From Anaerolineae bacterium (GTDB lineage: Bacteria > Chloroflexota > Anaerolineae > JAAYZQ01), in NCBI GenBank assembly GCA_016929795.1, contig JAFGIA010000041.1:1-21214 (forward strand): 21,214 nt of DNA, given 5' to 3'. The notes beneath the pieces were generated by a model that did no database searches, was not told the DNA's origin, and worked only from the letters and a program-made list of their open reading frames with translations. This document shows positions 3,776 through 17,706 of the stretch, piece by piece. A program made the position numbers and the translations under genes. Positions within the stretch are counted from its first letter, which is position 1. The number at the start of each line of letters is the position of its first letter.

Positions 3776-4237
3776 CTATGCCCATCCAGCGAGCGTGGCG
3801 ACTATGATCCCAAGGGAGTAGACGGCGTACAGCCCCAGAAACGAGCGCGGCAGCCAGATCTCCAGGTCGGAAAAGCAGTAGCGCGGCCGGCCTTTTTCAG
3901 GCTGGTAGAACCGCTCCCACTCCCGGGTAAAGGTCCGGCTGCTGCTCTCTATGGTGGTTTCCATCTCGCGTAGTTGCTCATAGTGCCAGCCGATGATCTG
4001 CTTATAGTCCGTGATGATCCTGTGCCACACCAGGGAGGCCAGCATACCCGCCGCAAAGAGCGGCAGGCTGGTCAGAACGAATCCCCAGCCACGAAAACCG
4101 GCATCCTTGACCAGAAACGCGAAAACAGTAAAGATGCCCGTGTTGACTGACAGGTAGATCGTAGAGATCGCGCGACGGCGTTCTGACAGAGATTCGATCC
4201 ACCCGCCAAAGAACTTGTATTCCTCAGACCTGTCCAT
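3776..4237 (-). CDS. Small two-part membrane protein, resembles RipA-family octameric membrane proteins
   Basis: 153 residues. The start MDRSEEYKFFGGW at 4237 is chosen because GAGGAGG lies just upstream on this strand; a longer reading from 4273 has no comparable site. The layout is an amphipathic N-terminus with YKFF and SERRRAISTIYLSVNTGIF, two adjacent helices (about 30-75), a cytoplasmic coiled stretch rich in R and E (about 80-120), and a last hydrophobic segment. The opening, with SxRR followed by a helix containing LSVNT, is like proteins annotated as RipA-family octameric membrane proteins, whose biochemical role is poorly known. It is convergent with the CPBP gene and divergent from the promoter at 4396. 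The family assignment is from memory of motif style only. Confidence 0.65.
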   Translation of the reverse strand: MDRSEEYKFFGGWIESLSERRRAISTIYLSVNTGIFTVFAFLVKDAGFRGWGFVLTSLPLFAAGMLASLVWHRIITDYKQIIGWHYEQLREMETTIESSSRTFTREWERFYQPEKGRPRYCFSDLEIWLPRSFLGLYAVYSLGIIVATLAGWA

Positions 4238-4395
4238 CCGTTCCCTCCTCCTCAAGATAATTCCCTTCCGCACGGTGTGTTCTCTTCCATGCTGCCACGG
4301 ATTATAACATCAAGCCCGGCTGAGGCCAACTCCCCTTTCTGGATACACAACCGCACCAGGTCCCCTCGGGCGCGCTGAACTGCAACTCCCGGCAT

Positions 4396-4424
4396 TTGAC
4401 CCCGTATAGAAATAGGTGTAGGAT
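4396..4424 (+). promoter_or_regulatory. Sigma70-type promoter for the small-membrane-protein operon
   Basis: TTGACC at 4396-4401 and TAGGAT at 4419-4424 are separated by exactly 17 bases, matching housekeeping promoter geometry. It lies about 80 bases upstream of the first TGA-containing gene and away from the divergent gene at 4237. The leader that follows contains two short hairpins, GCTAT/ATAGC (4440-4452) and GCCTGG/CCAGGC (4456-4472). Confidence 0.6.
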
Positions 4425-4506
4425 TGGATGGCGCGTCGCGCTATCACATAGCACAGCCTGGTCTGCCCAGGCACATCTCAGAGAGAGGAGAAAGGGGGGT
4501 AACAAT

Positions 4507-4692
4507 ATGTGGTGGTGGATCGGAGCATTCGTAGCGTGGCTCATCGGGGCGGCCTGAATCTTTTCCATCATGGCGGGCGTGGCCCGCGGCAAGATGAAAG
4601 GTCTGAGTCTCAGCATTCTCCCGGCCTATGCCTTTCACGGCGCATTCGCCGTGTTGGCCCTCTGGTTGGCGATGAAGGCGTTGGGCGCATGA
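4507..4692 (+). CDS. Putative small membrane selenoprotein A (in-frame TGA at codon 17)
   Basis: The reading from ATG 4507 gives 61 residues if TGA 4555-4557 is read as selenocysteine. A strong purine-rich ribosome site (AGGAGAAAGGGGGG) precedes the ATG. The first helix (about 3-25) begins MWWWIGAF and carries the TGA residue U17, followed by IFSIMAGV. A basic loop (RGKMKG) leads to a second helix (about 36-57) containing YAFHG (H44). The gene ends at TGA 4690-4692. Codons after the internal TGA keep the same G/C-ending, hydrophobic bias as those before it, which argues against a chance frame. The next gene encodes a paralog with its own in-frame TGA. I do not recognise the family. Alternatives are a 16-residue peptide, a TGG-to-TGA error, or readthrough as Trp. 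Confidence 0.72.
4566..4596 (+). promoter_or_regulatory. Candidate bacterial SECIS hairpin for gene A
   Basis: It lies just after the TGA at 4555-4557, within the coding sequence. Lower stem: 4566-4569 pairs with 4593-4596. There is an A-A mismatch (4570/4592), then U4571-A4591 and G4572-C4590, a two-base bulge (4588-4589), and a perfect 6-bp GCGGGC/GCCCGC stem (4573-4578 with 4582-4587) closed by loop GUG. The loop G is 21 nt after the TGA, within the spacing usual for bacterial SECIS elements. The apical loop is small unless the top pair opens. Confidence 0.55.
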
Positions 4693-4726
4693 GGCAGCGG
4701 CCAGCGACGACGAAAGGAGAAAAGAC

Positions 4727-4945
4727 ATGAAGACAATGGTGTACGTGGTCATCGGCGGCCTGCTGCTGGTGGCGGGCATGGGTTGAGCAGCCTACATCAT
4801 GGGGGCGGTCGTCTCCCAAGATTTCACCAGCCTGAGCGATCTGTGGGGCGCTCTGGCATTTCACGCCATCGCTACCGGCCTGGGCACCGGGCTGGTCGGG
4901 AAAGGCATGGCAGCGCGGCGAGAACCCGTGGCGCCGGCGGGGTAA
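4727..4945 (+). CDS. Putative small membrane selenoprotein B (in-frame TGA at codon 20), paralog of A
   Basis: The reading from ATG 4727 (ribosome site AAAGGAGA at 4713-4720) gives 72 residues ending at TAA 4943-4945, if TGA 4784-4786 is read as selenocysteine. The first helix (about 4-30) is MVYVVIGGLLLVAGMG then U20 then AAYIMGAVV. A short acidic loop (QDFTSLSD) leads to a second helix (about 38-58) with ALAFHA (H46) and a basic tail (KGMAARRE). Aligned on U it shares UxxxIM[AG][AG]V, LS in the loop and AFH in helix 2 with gene A, at nearly the same distances (U to H is 26 residues here, 27 in A). It lies 34 bases after A. Family unknown. Confidence 0.72.
4796..4822 (+). promoter_or_regulatory. 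Candidate bacterial SECIS hairpin for gene B
   Basis: It follows the TGA at 4784-4786. Lower stem AUC/GAU (4796-4798 with 4820-4822), an A-A mismatch (4799/4819), then a 6-bp upper stem (4800-4805 with 4813-4818, including one G-U pair) and a 7-base loop, CGGUCGU. The loop contains GGUC, the apical sequence of the Escherichia coli fdhF SECIS. The first loop G (4807) is 20 nt after the TGA. The same lower stem and A-A mismatch occur in the gene A hairpin, so the two elements look homologous. Confidence 0.6.
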
Positions 4946-4984
4946 ACAACCGGGCGCCGGAAAAGCGACGCGAGTTGAACAATT

Positions 4985-5011
4985 GGGTGCCTGCATTTTT
5001 TGCAGGCACCC
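4985..5011 (+). terminator. Perfect 11-bp hairpin with T5 loop between gene B and the YqaE gene
   Basis: GGGTGCCTGCA (4985-4995) and TGCAGGCACCC (5001-5011) are exact inverse complements around a TTTTT loop. No T-run follows, so on this strand it may be a weak terminator, an RNA-end stabiliser that sets the ratio of upstream to downstream genes, or a translational element, since the YqaE ribosome site starts about 10 bases later. Confidence 0.5.
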
Positions 5012-5030
5012 TCGACGCAAAGGAGCTCAA

Positions 5031-5192
5031 ATGGACGGATGTCGAATCATCGCCTCGGTCATCATTCCTCCGGTGGGGGTGTTTTTGAAGGTCGGTCTCG
5101 GCTGGCCTTTCTGGCTGAATATCTTGCTCACCCTGCTCGGATATATCCCCGGGCTGGTACACGCCATCTGGATCATTGCACGGGAAGACTAG
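5031..5192 (+). CDS. YqaE/Pmp3 family small membrane protein
   Basis: 53 residues from ATG 5031, preceded by AAAGGAG at good spacing. The whole protein matches the Pmp3/UPF0057 pattern: short N-terminus (MDGCRIIASV), first helix with IIPPVGVFLKVG, a GWPFWLN turn, and a second helix with LLTLLGYIPGLVHAIWII. Family members are two-helix membrane proteolipids induced by stress, and in yeast they affect membrane potential and cation sensitivity. The gene follows the two TGA-containing genes on the same strand and nearly touches the methyltransferase gene, so one operon is likely, though the hairpin at 4985 may tune expression. Its link to the putative selenoproteins is inferred from position and shared small-membrane-protein character. 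Confidence 0.92.
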   Translation: MDGCRIIASVIIPPVGVFLKVGLGWPFWLNILLTLLGYIPGLVHAIWIIARED

Positions 5193-5201
5193 GTGCCGTC
5201 A

Positions 5202-6050
5202 ATGGATGCACAGGCGTCAGACGAAACGGGAGCATCTTCCCCGCTGATGGCGACGGCGCATTGGACCGCCGCCGTACGCGCCATGGAAAGCGCCCGAGAC
5301 GACCGACTGATCGATGATCCGTGGGCAACGGCGCTGGCAGGAGAGGTAGGGCAGGCGTGGATCGCAGGCCGCACTGCCAGCAGCGTCGTGCCCATTGTGC
5401 TGCGCACCCGTTTTTTTGACGATTTTATGCAGCGCGTTGCGCGCGAGGAAGACATTCGCCAGATCGTGCTCGTAGCCGCGGGCCTCGACACGCGCGCCTT
5501 CCGCCTGGAATGGCCCGACGACACACACGTCTTTGAGGTGGATCAAGCGGAGGTTCTGCAACACAAAGCCCGGGTCCTCGAGCGAGCGGGCGCACAGCCT
5601 GGCTGCAAGCGCTCGATCGTCAAAGCAGATCTCGCCGGTCCGTGGACGGCGGACCTCGTCGCTGCCGGCTTGAATCCCCAGGCCCCTACCTTGTGGCTGA
5701 TCGAGGGCTTGCTCTTCTACGTCCCGAATGAGCACCTACGGGGCATTCTCGATGGCGTGACGCACCTGGCAGCCCCCGGAAGCTGGATCGGCTTTGACAT
5801 TGTCAACAGTGTGACGCTGACCCACCCGCTGGTGCACGACTGGATCGAGATGCAGGCCCAGTTGGGCGCGCCGTGGATCGGCACACTCGACGACCCGGTG
5901 GAGTACCTGGCCGGGCGTGGGTGGCGCGCGAGCCTGACCCAGGCCGGCCAGCCCGATGCAAGCTATGGCCGGTGGCCTTTCCCTGTTTTGCCCACCCTGA
6001 TGCCAGGTGTGCCGCATAACTGGTTCGTGACGGCGCGAAAAGAAGGCTGA
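5202..6050 (+). CDS. Class I SAM-dependent methyltransferase (leucine carboxyl methyltransferase / TIGR00027-like)
   Basis: 282 residues from ATG 5202, with AGGTG at 5191-5195 as a modest ribosome site; a GTG at 5193 in the same frame is the alternative. The SAM-binding motif I appears as VLVAAGLDTRAFRL (about 89-102), followed by FEVDQ with an acidic ribose-binding residue (D114) and the conserved WLIEGLLFYVP. The N-terminal part has the family's DRLIDDPWA and VVPIVLRTRFFDD blocks. Such enzymes are related to leucine carboxyl methyltransferases and to poorly characterised mycobacterial O-methyltransferases; the substrate is unknown. The gene starts within ten bases of the YqaE stop, so they are co-transcribed. 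Confidence 0.88.
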   Translation: MDAQASDETGASSPLMATAHWTAAVRAMESARDDRLIDDPWATALAGEVGQAWIAGRTASSVVPIVLRTRFFDDFMQRVAREEDIRQIVLVAAGLDTRAFRLEWPDDTHVFEVDQAEVLQHKARVLERAGAQPGCKRSIVKADLAGPWTADLVAAGLNPQAPTLWLIEGLLFYVPNEHLRGILDGVTHLAAPGSWIGFDIVNSVTLTHPLVHDWIEMQAQLGAPWIGTLDDPVEYLAGRGWRASLTQAGQPDASYGRWPFPVLPTLMPGVPHNWFVTARKEG

Positions 6051-13753: not shown

Positions 13754-13785
13754 CACGACCACCACGCGGGGGTCGTGTTGTTTTT
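13753..13785 (+). terminator. Intrinsic terminator after the GntR gene
   Basis: ACACGACC (13753-13760) pairs with GGTCGTGT (13771-13778), extended by CC/GG after one mismatch, with a 4-base loop, followed by TTGTTTTT. The stem begins inside the regulator's stop codon. It should separate the regulator from the methyltransferase gene or allow only partial readthrough. Confidence 0.75.
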
Positions 13786-13828
13786 CAGGGTGAAATCCGG
13801 TCAGGCCAGCAAGGAGGAGGGTAATAGA

Positions 13829-14698
13829 ATGCAGACAATACTTAAGGGCATGGGCAAGAAAGTTGTCATCGGCGACAACCGCCCGACAGTGATCCTGGGT
13901 GAGCGTATCAACCCGACAGGCAAGAAAAAACTGGCGGCAGCGTTGGTAGCAGGCGATCTCGAGGTCGTGCGCCAGGAAGCGCTGGCTCAGGTGGACGCGG
14001 GAGCAGACATCCTGGACGTCAACGTGGGCGCCGCCGGCGTGGACGAGGTAGCGCTGCTGCCAGCAGCCGTTCGGCTCGTGCTCGAGACGGTAGAGGTACC
14101 GGTGGCGATCGACACGGCCGACGGCAAGGCGATGGCTGCGGCGCTCGCCGCCCACAAAGAGGTCAATCCCGACGGCAAGCCGCTCATCAACTCGGTGAAT
14201 GGGGAAGAGGAGAGCATGGCGCGCGTGCTGCCGCTGGTGGCAGAGTATGGCACCGCCGTCATCGGCCTGTGTATGGATGACAATGGCATCCCCGAGACGC
14301 CGGAGCAGCGCCTCGAGGTGGCGAAAAAGATCGTGGCCCGGGCAGAGCAGCACGGCATCCCGCGTGAGAACATCCTGATCGACTGCCTGGCGCTTACCGT
14401 CGGGGCCGACTCGAACGCAGCCAAGATCACACTCGATGCGATCAAGATGGTGCGCGAGGAGTTGGGGGTGAACCTGGCGTTGGGCGCAAGCAACGTGTCG
14501 TTCGGCTTGCCTGATAGGGAGATCCTGAACGGCGTGTTCCTGGGCATGGCCATCGACCGCGGGCTGAACTGCCCGATCGTCGACGCGGCCAAGGTGCGCA
14601 AGTACATCCTGGCAGCCGATCTGGCGTTGGGCCGCGACGAGTATGCGATGAAATACCTCAAAGACTATCGCAAGCGGCAAAAGGAAGGTAGCAAGTAA
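13829..14698 (+). CDS. Methyltetrahydrofolate:corrinoid methyltransferase-like protein (AcsE/MtrH-like pterin-binding TIM barrel)
   Basis: 289 residues from ATG 13829 (AGGAGG about ten bases before). The pterin-binding barrel motifs are clear: VILGERINPTGKK near the N-terminus, DAGADILDVNVGA (about 53-65), PVAIDTADGKA, LINSVNGEEE, GLCMDDNGIPETPEQR, DCLALTVG and LGASNVSFGLPDR. These are shared by AcsE, which moves a methyl group from methyltetrahydrofolate to a corrinoid iron-sulfur protein, and by methyltransferases of anaerobic methyl-compound degradation. No corrinoid-binding protein gene is in the window, so the partner is elsewhere. The gene lies between the GntR terminator and a cobalamin riboswitch. 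I cannot tell a Wood-Ljungdahl role from a role in demethylating an imported compound. Confidence 0.87.
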   Translation: MQTILKGMGKKVVIGDNRPTVILGERINPTGKKKLAAALVAGDLEVVRQEALAQVDAGADILDVNVGAAGVDEVALLPAAVRLVLETVEVPVAIDTADGKAMAAALAAHKEVNPDGKPLINSVNGEEESMARVLPLVAEYGTAVIGLCMDDNGIPETPEQRLEVAKKIVARAEQHGIPRENILIDCLALTVGADSNAAKITLDAIKMVREELGVNLALGASNVSFGLPDREILNGVFLGMAIDRGLNCPIVDAAKVRKYILAADLALGRDEYAMKYLKDYRKRQKEGSK

Positions 14699-14784
14699 TG
14701 AGCCGCAGGTGCCAAGTCGCCAATAACGAGTTGAGCAGAGGCTTGAGAGGGAGAGCATAAGGTAGATCGCGCAGACGAGAAAAA

Positions 14785-14947
14785 GGCAAGGGTGAGCCCG
14801 ACCCGCGCCGAAGGCGCGCCGGGGCCAAGAGGGGAAGCCGGTGGAAATCCGGCGCTGTCCCGCAACTGTGTAGCCGTGGGCAGTGATGAGTGAGTCGTCC
14901 ATTCACTGATTGCCAGCCACGAATAAGCCAGAGCACCTGCCTTTGCC
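14785..14947 (+). promoter_or_regulatory. Cobalamin (B12) riboswitch
   Basis: The conserved cobalamin aptamer core is readable: GGGAAGCCGGTG (14832-14843), CCGG pairing, CCCGCAACTG (14859-14868), and the B12 box AAGCCAGAGCACCTGCC near the 3' end (14925-14941). The closing stem GGCAAGG (14785-14791) pairs with CCTTTGCC (14940-14947). A variable hairpin built on GGCAGTGA/TCACTGATTGCC lies between. It is followed directly by an intrinsic terminator, so binding of adenosylcobalamin or a related cobalamin probably stops transcription of the transporter genes downstream. Confidence 0.93.
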
Positions 14948-14968
14948 ACGATTATGCACCTCCGCGGA

Positions 14969-15046: not shown

Positions 15047-15160
15047 ATGACCCACAAGCGTACTCAAAGCCCAGGAGACGGGCAGCGAGCGGCCAGTTCT
15101 GGCCCGAAGGACACAGCTGTTAGTGATATCAAAAATTCCGAAGGAGGAAAGAGACAATGA
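15047..15160 (+). CDS. Possible 37-residue leader peptide coupled to the binding-protein gene
   Basis: ATG 15047 is preceded by AGGGAGGTG, a strong but close ribosome site. The peptide begins MTHKRTQSPGDGQR and is hydrophilic and basic, with no helix or known motif. Its stop overlaps the start of the next gene (ATGA, 15157-15160), so translation could be coupled. It lies downstream of the riboswitch terminator, so it is made only when the switch is on. It may be a real small protein, a coupling device, or a chance frame; codon usage is less G/C-ending than in the neighbours, which lowers confidence. Confidence 0.35.
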   Translation: MTHKRTQSPGDGQRAASSGPKDTAVSDIKNSEGGKRQ

Positions 15161-17706
15161 GTCGTTGGATTCAGAAATTTCTCGCAGTGGCCATCATCCT
15201 GAGCCTGGTGATGGCGGTGGCAGGCTGTGGGACGACACCCGAGCCCGAGGCAGAGCCGACACAGGCCACAGGTGCCGAGACAGAAGCCACCAGCCCGCCC
15301 GCGGCGGAAGCCACCGAGACCTTCAAGCTCGGCGTGTTGGGCCCCTTCAGCGGCCCGAGCGCGCGCACGGGCGACGAGTTCAAGGCAGCCGCGACCATGG
15401 CATTTGACGCCATCGACTGGCAGATCTGCCAGTACAAGATCGAGCCAGTGTGGGTTGACTCGCAGTCCGACCCCGCCAAAGCCGCCCAGGCATACGAGCA
15501 GGCGATCATCCAGGACGGGATCGACGCGGGTGCACTGAACTGGCACAGCTCCGTCGCCGTTTCTGTCATGGAGATCGCGGCCAAGCACCAGGTGCCCCAC
15601 TTTGCCCCGTACGGCGCGACCGAAGTCGTGAATGAGACGTGGCTGAGCAACCCCGACCGCTACTACTACTGGGTGAACAAGTGGTGGCCTACCCCGAGAA
15701 AGCTGAGCATCAGCTACGTACAGGCGGTAGAAGACGCCATTGCCACCGGCACATGGACACCCGAGTCCAAGACGGTGGCCATCTATGGCGAGGACACCGA
15801 CTGGGGGCGCAGCTTTGGTGGCGCCATCAAGGAGCAGCTCGAGGCAGCCGGTTGGGAGACGGTGGCGGAAGAGTACTTTGGCATCGACCAGACCGAGTTC
15901 TATCCGCTCCTCAACAAGTTCGTCGACCTGAACCCGGCGCTGCTGGCAGGCACCAGCACGGCGCTGCCCTCATTCTCGGCCTTTATCAAGCAGGCCGACG
16001 AAGTGGGCCTGGAAAGCCTGATCGTCGCCGACGGCCTCGGCTGGTTCGGCGAGTGGTACGATTCGACCGGCTCATCGTCGAACTATATCCTCGACCAGAT
16101 CCCAGGATGGGCGACGGCAGAGGGCAAAGAGTTCGCCGAGCAGTTCGAGGCAGAGAACGGCTTTGCGCCGAGCCCGTCGGCAGCCGGCCTCGCGTTCGAC
16201 GGGACCAACTTCTTTATCCAGGTTGCCCAGCAAGTGTGTGAGAACACCGGCGCGCTGAGCCGCGAGTCACTGGCCGAGTTTGCCAAGAACGAGATCCAGA
16301 CGGGCAACTGGTCGTTCACCGACGGGATCGTCATGAGCGAGTACAAATACACACCCGAGACCGTGCCCGACCCGATCGTCGGCAAGGGCTACTATATCTT
16401 CCCAGTGCTCCAATACTTTGACGGCGAGGGCAAGGTGATCTATCCGCCCGAGTGGGCCGAGCAGCAGCTGGCCGCCCCTGGCGCGGAAGCCGTGATCATC
16501 GAGCAAGAGCCTGTCGACGAGCCGATGGAAGCCACGGAAACCTTCAACCTCGGATTCCTTGGGCCGTTCAGCGGACCGAGTGCGCGCACGGGCGCCGAGT
16601 TCAAGGCATCGGCCACCATGGCGCTCGAAGAGATCAACAGCCAGGTATGCAAGTACAAGATCGAGCCGGTGTGGATCGACTCACAGTCGGACCCGGCCAA
16701 GGCTGCCCAGGCGTACGAGCAGGCGATCGTCCAGAATGGAGTGCAGGCCGGTGTCCTCAACTGGCACAGCTCTGTGTCCGTCTCGGTCATGGAGATCACA
16801 GCCAAGCACAAAGTGCCCCACTTCTTTGGCTTTGGCGCCACAGAGGTGGTGAACGAGACCTTTGCGTCCGACCCCGACAAGTACGGCTACTGGATGTTCA
16901 AGGGATGGCCGACGCCGCGGAAGCTGAGCGTCAGCTATGTGCAGATGCTCGAAGATGCTATTGCCACTGGCACGTGGACGCCCGAGTCCAAGACGGTGGC
17001 GATCTATGGTGAGGACACGGACTGGGGGCGCAGCTTTGGCGGCGCCATCAAGGAGCAGCTGGAGGCAGCCGGTTGGGAGACGGTAGCAGAAGAGTACTTT
17101 GCCATCGACCAGACCGAGTTCTATCCACTCCTGAACAAGTTCGTGGAGCTGAACCCGGCCGTCATCGCCGGCACGAGCACGGCAGCACCTTCCTTCTCGG
17201 CCTTTATCAAGCAGGCTGACGAAGTGGGCCTCGAGAGCCTGATCATCGCCGACGGCCTCGGCTGGGTCGGCGAGTGGTACGACCTGACAGGCACTTCTTC
17301 GAACTATGTCCTCGACCAGATCCCGGGATGGGCAAGCGCCGAAGGCAAAGAGTTTTCCGAAACGTTCCGGGAGCAGTGGGACATGGAGCCAAGCCCGTCG
17401 TCGGCCGGCCTGTCGTACGACGGCACCCGGTTCTTCCTGGCAATCGCCAGGGATGCCTGTGCCGAGTATGGCGAGCTGAGCAGCGACATCATCTACAACT
17501 TTGTCAAGGACAACGTGTGGACCGGCGACTGGACCTTCACAGACGGCATCGTCATGAACGAGTATGCGACGAATCCGGAAGAGGTGCCCGACCCGATCGT
17601 GGGCAAGGGCTACTACATCTTCCCGGTGCTCCAGTACTTTGATGGCGAGGGCCAGGTGATCTATCCGCCCGAGTGGGCCACGCAGCAGATGCAGCCCAAG
17701 CCCTGA
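15157..17706 (+). CDS. Tandem-duplicated ABC substrate-binding lipoprotein (branched-chain amino acid / HAAT type)
   Basis: 849 residues from ATG 15157 (AAGGAGGAAAG upstream). A lipoprotein signal peptide ends in VAGC with C24 as the lipid-anchored cysteine, followed by an acidic linker rich in P, T and A. Two periplasmic-binding domains of Peripla_BP_6/LivK type follow (about 55-440 and 462-849), each opening LGPFSGPSARTG, separated by exactly 407 codons and joined by a short P/E-rich linker. Long blocks are nearly identical between copies (for example GEDTDWGRSFGGAIKEQL and IDQTEFYPLLNKFV), so duplication is recent or maintained by gene conversion. Both copies keep two cysteines at matching places. 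It feeds the permeases encoded downstream. The ligand is unknown; the riboswitch implies a link to cobalamin status. Confidence 0.93.
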   Translation: MSRWIQKFLAVAIILSLVMAVAGCGTTPEPEAEPTQATGAETEATSPPAAEATETFKLGVLGPFSGPSARTGDEFKAAATMAFDAIDWQICQYKIEPVWVDSQSDPAKAAQAYEQAIIQDGIDAGALNWHSSVAVSVMEIAAKHQVPHFAPYGATEVVNETWLSNPDRYYYWVNKWWPTPRKLSISYVQAVEDAIATGTWTPESKTVAIYGEDTDWGRSFGGAIKEQLEAAGWETVAEEYFGIDQTEFYPLLNKFVDLNPALLAGTSTALPSFSAFIKQADEVGLESLIVADGLGWFGEWYDSTGSSSNYILDQIPGWATAEGKEFAEQFEAENGFAPSPSAAGLAFDGTNFFIQVAQQVCENTGALSRESLAEFAKNEIQTGNWSFTDGIVMSEYKYTPETVPDPIVGKGYYIFPVLQYFDGEGKVIYPPEWAEQQLAAPGAEAVIIEQEPVDEPMEATETFNLGFLGPFSGPSARTGAEFKASATMALEEINSQVCKYKIEPVWIDSQSDPAKAAQAYEQAIVQNGVQAGVLNWHSSVSVSVMEITAKHKVPHFFGFGATEVVNETFASDPDKYGYWMFKGWPTPRKLSVSYVQMLEDAIATGTWTPESKTVAIYGEDTDWGRSFGGAIKEQLEAAGWETVAEEYFAIDQTEFYPLLNKFVELNPAVIAGTSTAAPSFSAFIKQADEVGLESLIIADGLGWVGEWYDLTGTSSNYVLDQIPGWASAEGKEFSETFREQWDMEPSPSSAGLSYDGTRFFLAIARDACAEYGELSSDIIYNFVKDNVWTGDWTFTDGIVMNEYATNPEEVPDPIVGKGYYIFPVLQYFDGEGQVIYPPEWATQQMQPKP

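What the first reader, a model, noticed from the sequence alone, without database searches (positions are those of the whole stretch)
4507..4945. Two adjacent paralogous small membrane proteins, each with one in-frame TGA: candidate new selenoprotein pair
Seen: A (61 codons) and B (72 codons) each stay open through one TGA (codons 17 and 20) located in the first membrane helix. Aligned on that codon they share UxxxIM[AG][AG]V, LS in the loop and AFH in the second helix, with U-to-His distances of 27 and 26. Both have good ribosome sites, and coding bias continues after the TGA. Two independent sequence errors at homologous positions are unlikely. Known: bacteria insert selenocysteine at UGA when a SECIS hairpin follows. 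Inference: a two-helix selenoprotein family in which a selenol and a histidine on neighbouring helices face each other in the membrane, perhaps in redox or metal binding. I know no described family like it.
Basis: partly seen in the sequence, partly recalled or inferred. Interest (0 to 1): 0.95.

Follow-up and report, generated by a model that had tools for sequence, protein, structure and literature searches.

The report
Paired selenoproteins inside the membrane
Two neighbouring genes for small, predicted membrane proteins, found side by side in bacteria of two phyla, each carry an internal stop codon that is likely read as the rare amino acid selenocysteine, which would make them a selenoprotein family missing from the current inventory, with its selenium predicted to sit inside the membrane.

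Summary
A (4507-4692) and B (4727-4945) are homologous (hhalign 96.6%, E 6e-10). Both occur side by side in 17 further genomes of Bacillota and Chloroflexota; all 18 A and 18 B copies, window included, have TGA at the same aligned codon. Of 120 listed A-family proteins, 43 are full length and 40 of these have Cys there; the other 77 start just after it. In all 36 copies a bSECIS-like hairpin with an invariant loop GU follows. In A, third codon positions differ 5.6% inside the hairpin against 59-64% outside. SelB and tRNA-Sec were each found in 15 of 17 genomes, but SelB is common (306 of 400 Chloroflexota); the window's own genome is not held. A 119-family inventory lists nothing like it; Pfam and NCBIfam give no credible match. 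Function is inferred: each protein is predicted to be a two-helix membrane hairpin with Sec and an invariant His at equal distance from the turn, likely an intramembrane selenol-histidine redox centre made by A and B together.

The parts
4489..4499 (+). purine-rich ribosome-site-like stretch before A
   Evidence: read; GGAGG-type stretches stand before A in several relatives
4507..4692 (+). gene A, 61 codons plus stop, predicted two-helix membrane selenoprotein
   Evidence: homologs; model mean pLDDT 97.1 with helices 2-26 and 35-60
4555..4557 (+). in-frame TGA, codon 17 of A, likely Sec
   Evidence: TGA in 18 of 18 A copies; Cys in 40 of 43 full-length homologs
4573..4587 (+). bSECIS-like hairpin of A (6-bp stem, GUG loop 21 nt after UGA)
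4636..4638 (+). codon for His44 of A
   Evidence: His in 120 of 120 listed A-family proteins
4713..4719 (+). AAAGGAG, ribosome-site-like, before B
   Evidence: read
4727..4945 (+). gene B, 72 codons plus stop, predicted two-helix membrane selenoprotein, paralog of A
   Evidence: model mean pLDDT 88.7 with helices 2-30 and 36-65
4784..4786 (+). in-frame TGA, codon 20 of B, likely Sec
   Evidence: TGA in 18 of 18 B copies
4800..4818 (+). bSECIS-like hairpin of B (GGUC loop 20 nt after UGA, bulged U)
4862..4864 (+). codon for His46 of B
   Evidence: invariant in the 15 rows of A9; an FH- or IH-type His at 26 or 28 residues from U in 18 of 18 B copies

Best explanation
A and B are adjacent, homologous genes, each interrupted at the same alignment position by one in-frame UGA that is likely decoded as selenocysteine through the hairpin that follows it, giving two predicted two-helix membrane proteins that would work together as a selenol-histidine redox centre inside the membrane. 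Shown here: the UGA is conserved at the same aligned codon, Cys replaces it in full-length A homologs, the hairpin is conserved as RNA, A and B stand together at all 18 loci, and Sec and His are the only polar residues invariant in both family alignments. Predicted: both proteins fold as helical hairpins, and Sec and His lie at equal distance from the turn (17 and 44 around 30.5 in A; 20 and 46 around 33 in B). Inferred: SelB with Sec-tRNA reads the UGA; A and B associate so that two selenols and two histidines meet at one depth of the bilayer; the His keeps the selenol ionised, and the pair cycles between selenol and a diselenide or mixed selenenyl-sulfide while reducing a membrane-soluble oxidant. 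Selenocysteine decoding: about 0.95. The redox centre of an A-B complex: about 0.4.
For: TGA at the same aligned codon in 18 of 18 A and 18 of 18 B copies from 17 genomes plus the window. In the last protein search 152 proteins matched and 120 were listed; 43 of these are full length, and at the TGA position they have Cys 40, Trp 1, Ala 1, Leu 1; the other 77 (one of them also the window's own) start at A-numbering 19-22, right after the TGA. Residues coded by the hairpin are fixed in the short forms and loose in the full-length group: A23 73 of 77 against 4 of 43, V25 77 of 77 against 14 of 43, R27 77 of 77 against 7 of 43. Third codon positions in A differ by 0.056 inside the hairpin, 0.587 upstream and 0.639 downstream (B: 0.328, 0.658, 0.632). 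Hairpins of at least 5 bp centred at the right place: A 17 of 18 against 2.82 expected with synonymous codons reshuffled, B 18 of 18 against 5.05. In B, with one N put in the loop of five rows to register them, 4 of 7 pairs change on both sides, 20 cells, 98.4% paired, covariation score reached by 0 of 500 shuffles. Loop, stem, loop G and spacing of the published bSECIS model are met by 36 of 36, and its energy limit by 30 of 36. The loop GU is invariant in 36 of 36. tRNA-Sec with UCA anticodon in 15 of 17 genomes; SelB over the cut-off in 15 of 17. A and B are homologous with U over U and FH over FH. His44 in 120 of 120. Two-helix models.
Against: No experiment. The window's genome is not held, so its own Sec machinery is untested; selA and selD were not searched anywhere. 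SelB is common in Chloroflexota (306 of 400), so its co-occurrence with the pair adds little. The hairpins of the window alone are not unusual against dinucleotide shuffles (six stretches, z from -1.42 to +0.93), and Rfam gives no SECIS match. Base-pair covariation in A is no better than shuffles; in B all double changes fall in one group of five genomes, and the count of double-change pairs is reached by 324 of 500 shuffles. The A hairpin misses the -7.5 kcal/mol limit in 5 of 18 and the B hairpin in 1 of 18. Three full-length homologs have Trp, Ala or Leu instead. No Cys form turned up in the genomes searched, and none at all for B, so the hosts and neighbours of the Cys forms are unknown. 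For the redox centre: no neighbour gene at a constant place, no fold match with E of 0.001 or less, B has a further Cys after the Sec in 10 of 18 copies and A in 2 of 18 at varied places, and nothing shows that A and B touch.
Confidence: 0.85

Rival explanations
1. The UGA is decoded as selenocysteine, but the Sec-His site binds a soft metal or a chalcogen species and moves or senses it across the membrane, rather than doing redox catalysis.
For: One conserved Sec or Cys and one conserved His per chain, both in predicted membrane helices. A membrane selenoprotein with a metal role (putative mercuric transport protein, PF02411) is in the inventory.
Against: No metal gene stands beside the pair at a constant place. 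The window chains have no second Cys ligand.
Confidence: 0.25
2. UGA is read as tryptophan in these organisms or at this site.
For: One full-length homolog, P0016, has Trp at this position.
Against: 40 of 43 full-length homologs have Cys. Gene A itself ends with TGA. The RNA hairpin would be pointless for Trp. A tRNA-Sec with UCA anticodon is present in 15 of 17 host genomes.
Confidence: 0.02
3. The UGA is a true stop and the gene product is the 40- or 48-residue ORF starting at the Met just after it, as annotation pipelines call it.
For: That is how 77 of 120 listed A-family proteins are annotated.
Against: The residues before the UGA are conserved (WW in 18 of 18 copies, with third positions drifting), and full-length Cys homologs cover them. 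Ribosome-site-like sequence lies before the upstream start. A stop would not freeze synonymous codons after it.
Confidence: 0.02
4. Assembly errors or pseudogenes.
For: Many sources are metagenome assemblies; one relative, G525 (L082), keeps only a remnant of B.
Against: The same TGA in 36 of 36 copies, two of them in the named strain Pelotomaculum terephthalicicum JT, with coding constraint on both sides.
Confidence: 0.01

Closest known systems
Bacterial selenoproteins in general (119 families or subfamilies in Table 1 of PMC13188914)
   Same: In-frame UGA, bSECIS-type hairpin right after it, Cys homologs, hosts with SelB and tRNA-Sec
   Different: By name and model no entry of Table 1 is a 60-75 residue two-helix protein with U in the first helix and an invariant His in the second; the majority of characterised ones have a thioredoxin-like fold (the review's statement)
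Membrane selenoproteins of the inventory: MerT-like mercuric transport protein (PF02411), YeeE/YedE (PF04143), SO_0444 Cu/Zn efflux transporter (NF033936), SaoP permease (NF040733)
   Same: Membrane proteins with Sec (that they are membrane proteins is recalled from their names)
Sec.1/Sec.2 thioredoxin-like selenoproteins of Brachyspira (PMC5330540, passages)
   Same: Two homologous selenoprotein genes of one family in one cluster
   Different: Thioredoxin domain (PF13192), not a membrane hairpin
Prokaryotic SECIS with U17, G23 and U24 (PMC8659212, passages; recalled as that of E. coli fdhF)
   Same: GU in the apical loop in 36 of 36 copies; U at nt 17 from the U of UGA in 35 of 36
   Different: The loop GU sits two nucleotides further down (25-26); U17 is not a bulge inside the main stem here

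Membership tests
Bacterial selenoprotein gene | In-frame UGA with coding sequence on both sides | tested here: met
   36 of 36 copies
Bacterial selenoprotein gene | bSECIS: 3-9 nt loop, 4-16 bp stem, G in first two loop positions, 16-37 nt spacing | tested here: met
   36 of 36 for these four constraints (model as given in PMC13188914)
Bacterial selenoprotein gene | bSECIS energy at or below -7.5 kcal/mol | tested here: inconclusive
   30 of 36 in a 33-nt stretch; both window hairpins pass
Bacterial selenoprotein gene | Cys-containing homologs at the UGA position | tested here: met
   A family: 40 of 43 full-length homologs. For B no Cys homolog was found; its only protein search gave 4 short forms, one of them the window's own
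Bacterial selenoprotein gene | UGA-containing homologs in other organisms | tested here: met
   17 genomes in two phyla
Bacterial selenoprotein gene | Host has SelB and tRNA-Sec | tested here: inconclusive
   Each in 15 of 17 relatives; the window's own genome is not held
Bacterial selenoprotein gene | Host has SelA and SelD | not tested
   No search was made for them
Bacterial selenoprotein gene | Sec shown in the protein | not testable with these tools
   Needs mass spectrometry or 75Se labelling
Listed selenoprotein families with a Pfam or NCBIfam model | Match to the family model | tested here: not met
   A: no match at E up to 1; B: only a sub-threshold Ntox22 line in Pfam (15.8 bits, cut-off 25). 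Families that the inventory keys to other databases were compared by name only
Genetic code with UGA as Trp | Trp in homologs, UGA not used as stop | tested here: not met
   Trp in 1 of 43; A itself stops at TGA

The most novel reading that the evidence does not exclude
A and B form a heteromeric membrane unit in which two selenocysteines, buried in facing helices and each opposed by a histidine, make a diselenide-type redox centre within the bilayer: a new selenoprotein architecture spread over two phyla and missed because annotation cuts both genes at the UGA.
Probability: 0.3. Interest if true: 0.92.

Novelty: new variant of a known kind. Interest (0 to 1): 0.85.

Why it matters
It adds a selenoprotein family with an unusual design: very small, predicted to be almost wholly in the membrane, and in a paralogous pair at all 18 loci seen. 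Of 120 listed A-family proteins 77 are short forms that start just after the UGA, so annotation pipelines seem to cut these genes there and hide the family. It also gives a natural case in which RNA structure dictates protein sequence: residues under the hairpin are fixed in the short (Sec) forms and free in the full-length, mostly Cys, forms. A named strain, Pelotomaculum terephthalicicum JT, makes a direct 75Se or mass-spectrometry test possible.

Tried and rejected
Rfam on the window and on 4400-5100 at E up to 10: a cobalamin riboswitch elsewhere and three chance snoRNA-type lines, no SECIS. Single-sequence folding of the window hairpins: not significant against dinucleotide shuffles. Viral contigs with three queries: no relative. 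Plasmids with two Cys homologs: nothing. Gene neighbourhood: no neighbour at a constant place; shared clusters were either within the five close genomes L049-L053 or broad families (such as ABC ATPases and kinases) in 3-4 loci at varied distances and strands. Twenty neighbours of 10 loci were put to Pfam: 13 matched varied families (signal peptidase, URO-D, amine oxidoreductase, abhydrolase, kinases, DUF2284, DUF4389 and others), 7 none. PDB by sequence: none for A; for B two weak hits, best E 0.15. PDB by fold: best E 4.8 for A and 0.54 for B, meaningless. Trp decoding, true stop, pseudogene: rejected, see rivals. SelB co-occurrence as proof: rejected because of the 306 of 400 base rate.

Rows dropped: A-profile hits G382 (22.1 bits) and G561 (22.5 bits), no TGA, in frames of 256 and 170 aa, taken as false. 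B-profile hits G792, G656, G513 and G741 (21-26 bits, no TGA) taken as false; G525 (40.3 bits) is a remnant without its first helix. Of 152 proteins only the 120 listed were counted; P0011 is not among them.

Full report
WHAT IS THERE. Gene A runs from ATG 4507 to the stop at 4690-4692 and gene B from ATG 4727 to the stop at 4943-4945. Each stays open through one TGA (4555-4557 and 4784-4786). Neighbours are an 8xMP membrane protein on the other strand (3776-4273), a Pmp3 protein (5031-5192) and a SAM-dependent methyltransferase (5193-6050). A has no Pfam or NCBIfam match at E up to 1; B has one Pfam line, Ntox22, far under its cut-off (15.8 against 25 bits).

FIRST SIGN. A protein search with each reading gave 6 A and 4 B proteins, of which P0006 and P0012 are also encoded by the window. 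All are short forms of 40-43 and 48-50 residues that begin just after the TGA. The other eight are 68-88% identical, so the upstream stop is conserved in them.

THE PAIR IN GENOMES. One scan of the GTDB collection with a joined A and B query (the two peptide patterns used both came from A) found six loci: Pelotomaculum terephthalicicum JT, two Chloroflexi MAGs, the Peptococcaceae draft SCADC1_2_3, a Thermincola MAG and a Desulfotomaculum MAG. Those patterns were taken from TGA-bearing forms, so this scan leans towards them. Profile searches that read through stops found A in 5 of 25 genomes of the Pelotomaculum family, in 9 of 400 Chloroflexota (8 with one TGA, one weak false hit), in 4 of 398 of the Pelotomaculum phylum (3 with one TGA, one weak false hit) and in 6 of 294 of one Chloroflexota class (all with one TGA). 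These sets overlap, and no Cys form turned up in them. Together with the window this makes 18 loci, and both A and B are found at every one, with TGA at the same aligned codon in 18 of 18 A and 18 of 18 B. A search for B in the 398 genomes of the Pelotomaculum phylum found it with TGA in the same three, plus one remnant in G525 that lacks the first helix, and four weak hits that I dropped.

SEC/CYS REPLACEMENT. The third protein search, with a profile of 15 A sequences, gave 152 proteins, 120 listed. Of the 120, 43 are full length: Cys at the TGA position in 40, Trp in P0016, Ala in P0020, Leu in P0061. The other 77 start at A-numbering 19 to 22, after the TGA. Some sources name their hosts: Symbiobacteriaceae, Thermodesulfobacteriota, Chloroflexota. 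His44, Gly45 and Ala48 are the same in 120 of 120. No Cys form of B was found; B had only one protein search, made with the window sequence alone.

THE HAIRPIN. In all 36 copies the minimum-energy fold has a hairpin with its loop starting 20-21 nt after the UGA and with GU at nucleotides 25-26 counted from the U of UGA. Loop size, stem length, loop G and spacing of the published bSECIS model are met by 36 of 36, and the energy limit by 13 of 18 A and 17 of 18 B. Keeping the protein and reshuffling synonymous codons by local usage gives the hairpin in 2.82 of 18 A and 5.05 of 18 B, against 17 and 18 observed; the copies are related, so these are not independent trials. In A the third codon positions differ by 0.056 inside the hairpin and 0.587-0.639 outside. 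The residues written by the hairpin are fixed in the short forms and loose in the full-length group: A23 73 of 77 against 4 of 43, V25 77 of 77 against 14 of 43, R27 77 of 77 against 7 of 43. M22 is left out because short ORFs are called from it. In B, once I put one N in the loop of five rows, four of seven stem pairs change on both sides between those five genomes and the rest, with 98.4% of cells paired. In A the stem hardly varies, so covariation says nothing. The window's hairpins taken alone do not stand out from shuffles (z -1.42 to +0.93), and Rfam has no SECIS match.

SEC MACHINERY. SelB over the curated cut-off is in 4 of 6 plus 11 of 11 host genomes. A tRNA-Sec with UCA anticodon is in 4 of 6 plus 11 of 11. 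The genomes that miss one or both are G002 (tRNA-Sec present, SelB only as a fragment), G004 (SelB present, no tRNA-Sec) and G006 (a partial SelB only, no tRNA-Sec); all three are in many contigs. SelB is over the cut-off in 306 of 400 Chloroflexota, so this is consistent but not telling. SelA and SelD were not searched. The window's genome is not held. In print, all analysed Dehalogenimonas genomes encode selCDAB and a Sec-containing FdnG (PMC13390414, passages).

PARALOGY AND FOLD. Profile comparison of A and B gives probability 96.6% and E 6e-10 over 62 columns, with U on U and FH on FH. Predicted structures are two-helix hairpins: A mean pLDDT 97.1, helices 2-26 and 35-60; B 88.7, helices 2-30 and 36-65. 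The U-to-His distance is 27 in 18 of 18 A, and 26 in 13 and 28 in 5 of 18 B. In the window proteins the two residues lie at equal distance from the middle of the turn. No fold match has E of 0.001 or less, and the PDB has no sequence relative of note.

HOW IT LIKELY WORKS. SelB would bind the hairpin and deliver Sec at the UGA. Each product would be a short membrane hairpin with one Sec and one invariant His. Window A and B have no other Cys, though B has a further Cys after the Sec in 10 of 18 copies and A in 2 of 18, at varied places. A single Sec needs a partner, and the constant company of A and B makes the other's Sec the natural one. I therefore commit to an A-B complex with a redox centre in the bilayer, at about 0.4, and keep soft-metal or chalcogen handling as the main rival at 0.25. 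Sec decoding itself I put at 0.95. The neighbourhood gives no help: no gene stands at a constant place beside the pair.

NOVELTY. The 2026 review (PMC13188914; section 7, parts 1 and 2 of 3, with the whole of Table 1, and passages) lists 119 families or subfamilies; by name and model none is this one. Deep-Sep (PMC12013277) and the 2022 review (PMC9312934) were seen as passages, which name none either. Literature searches, seen as listings, showed no paper on such a pair. The library holds no preprints and few subscription papers, so an unseen report is possible. Membrane selenoproteins as such are known. New here are the very small helical hairpin, the Sec in a predicted membrane helix opposite a His, and the paralogous pair.

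Noticed in passing
window 14773-14958 and 15157-17706: A cobalamin riboswitch (49.9 bits) stands before an 849-aa ORF that reads as two tandem copies of a substrate-binding-protein-like sequence; a pterin-binding methyltransferase (13775-14698) lies just upstream.
   Followed up: no
window 5031-5192: A Pmp3 proteolipid (PF01679), another tiny membrane protein, follows B directly; it was not looked for in the relatives.
   Followed up: no
L082 (G525), middle of the locus, minus strand: A remnant of B with only the second helix, between flanks like those of L005: a natural loss of the pair.
   Followed up: partly
P0016: A full-length A-family protein with Trp at the Sec position but with the Sec-type residues EVFRGK after it; it could be a UGA-to-UGG change or a translation with another code.
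   Followed up: no
L003:10227-10439: B of this Chloroflexi MAG has no ATG, GTG or TTG at the expected start; an ATC stands there.
   Followed up: no
L083 and L084: Weak B-profile hits (25.6 and 24.4 bits); L083 holds a small ORF with a Cys near the Sec position but no FH; left out as likely chance.
   Followed up: partly
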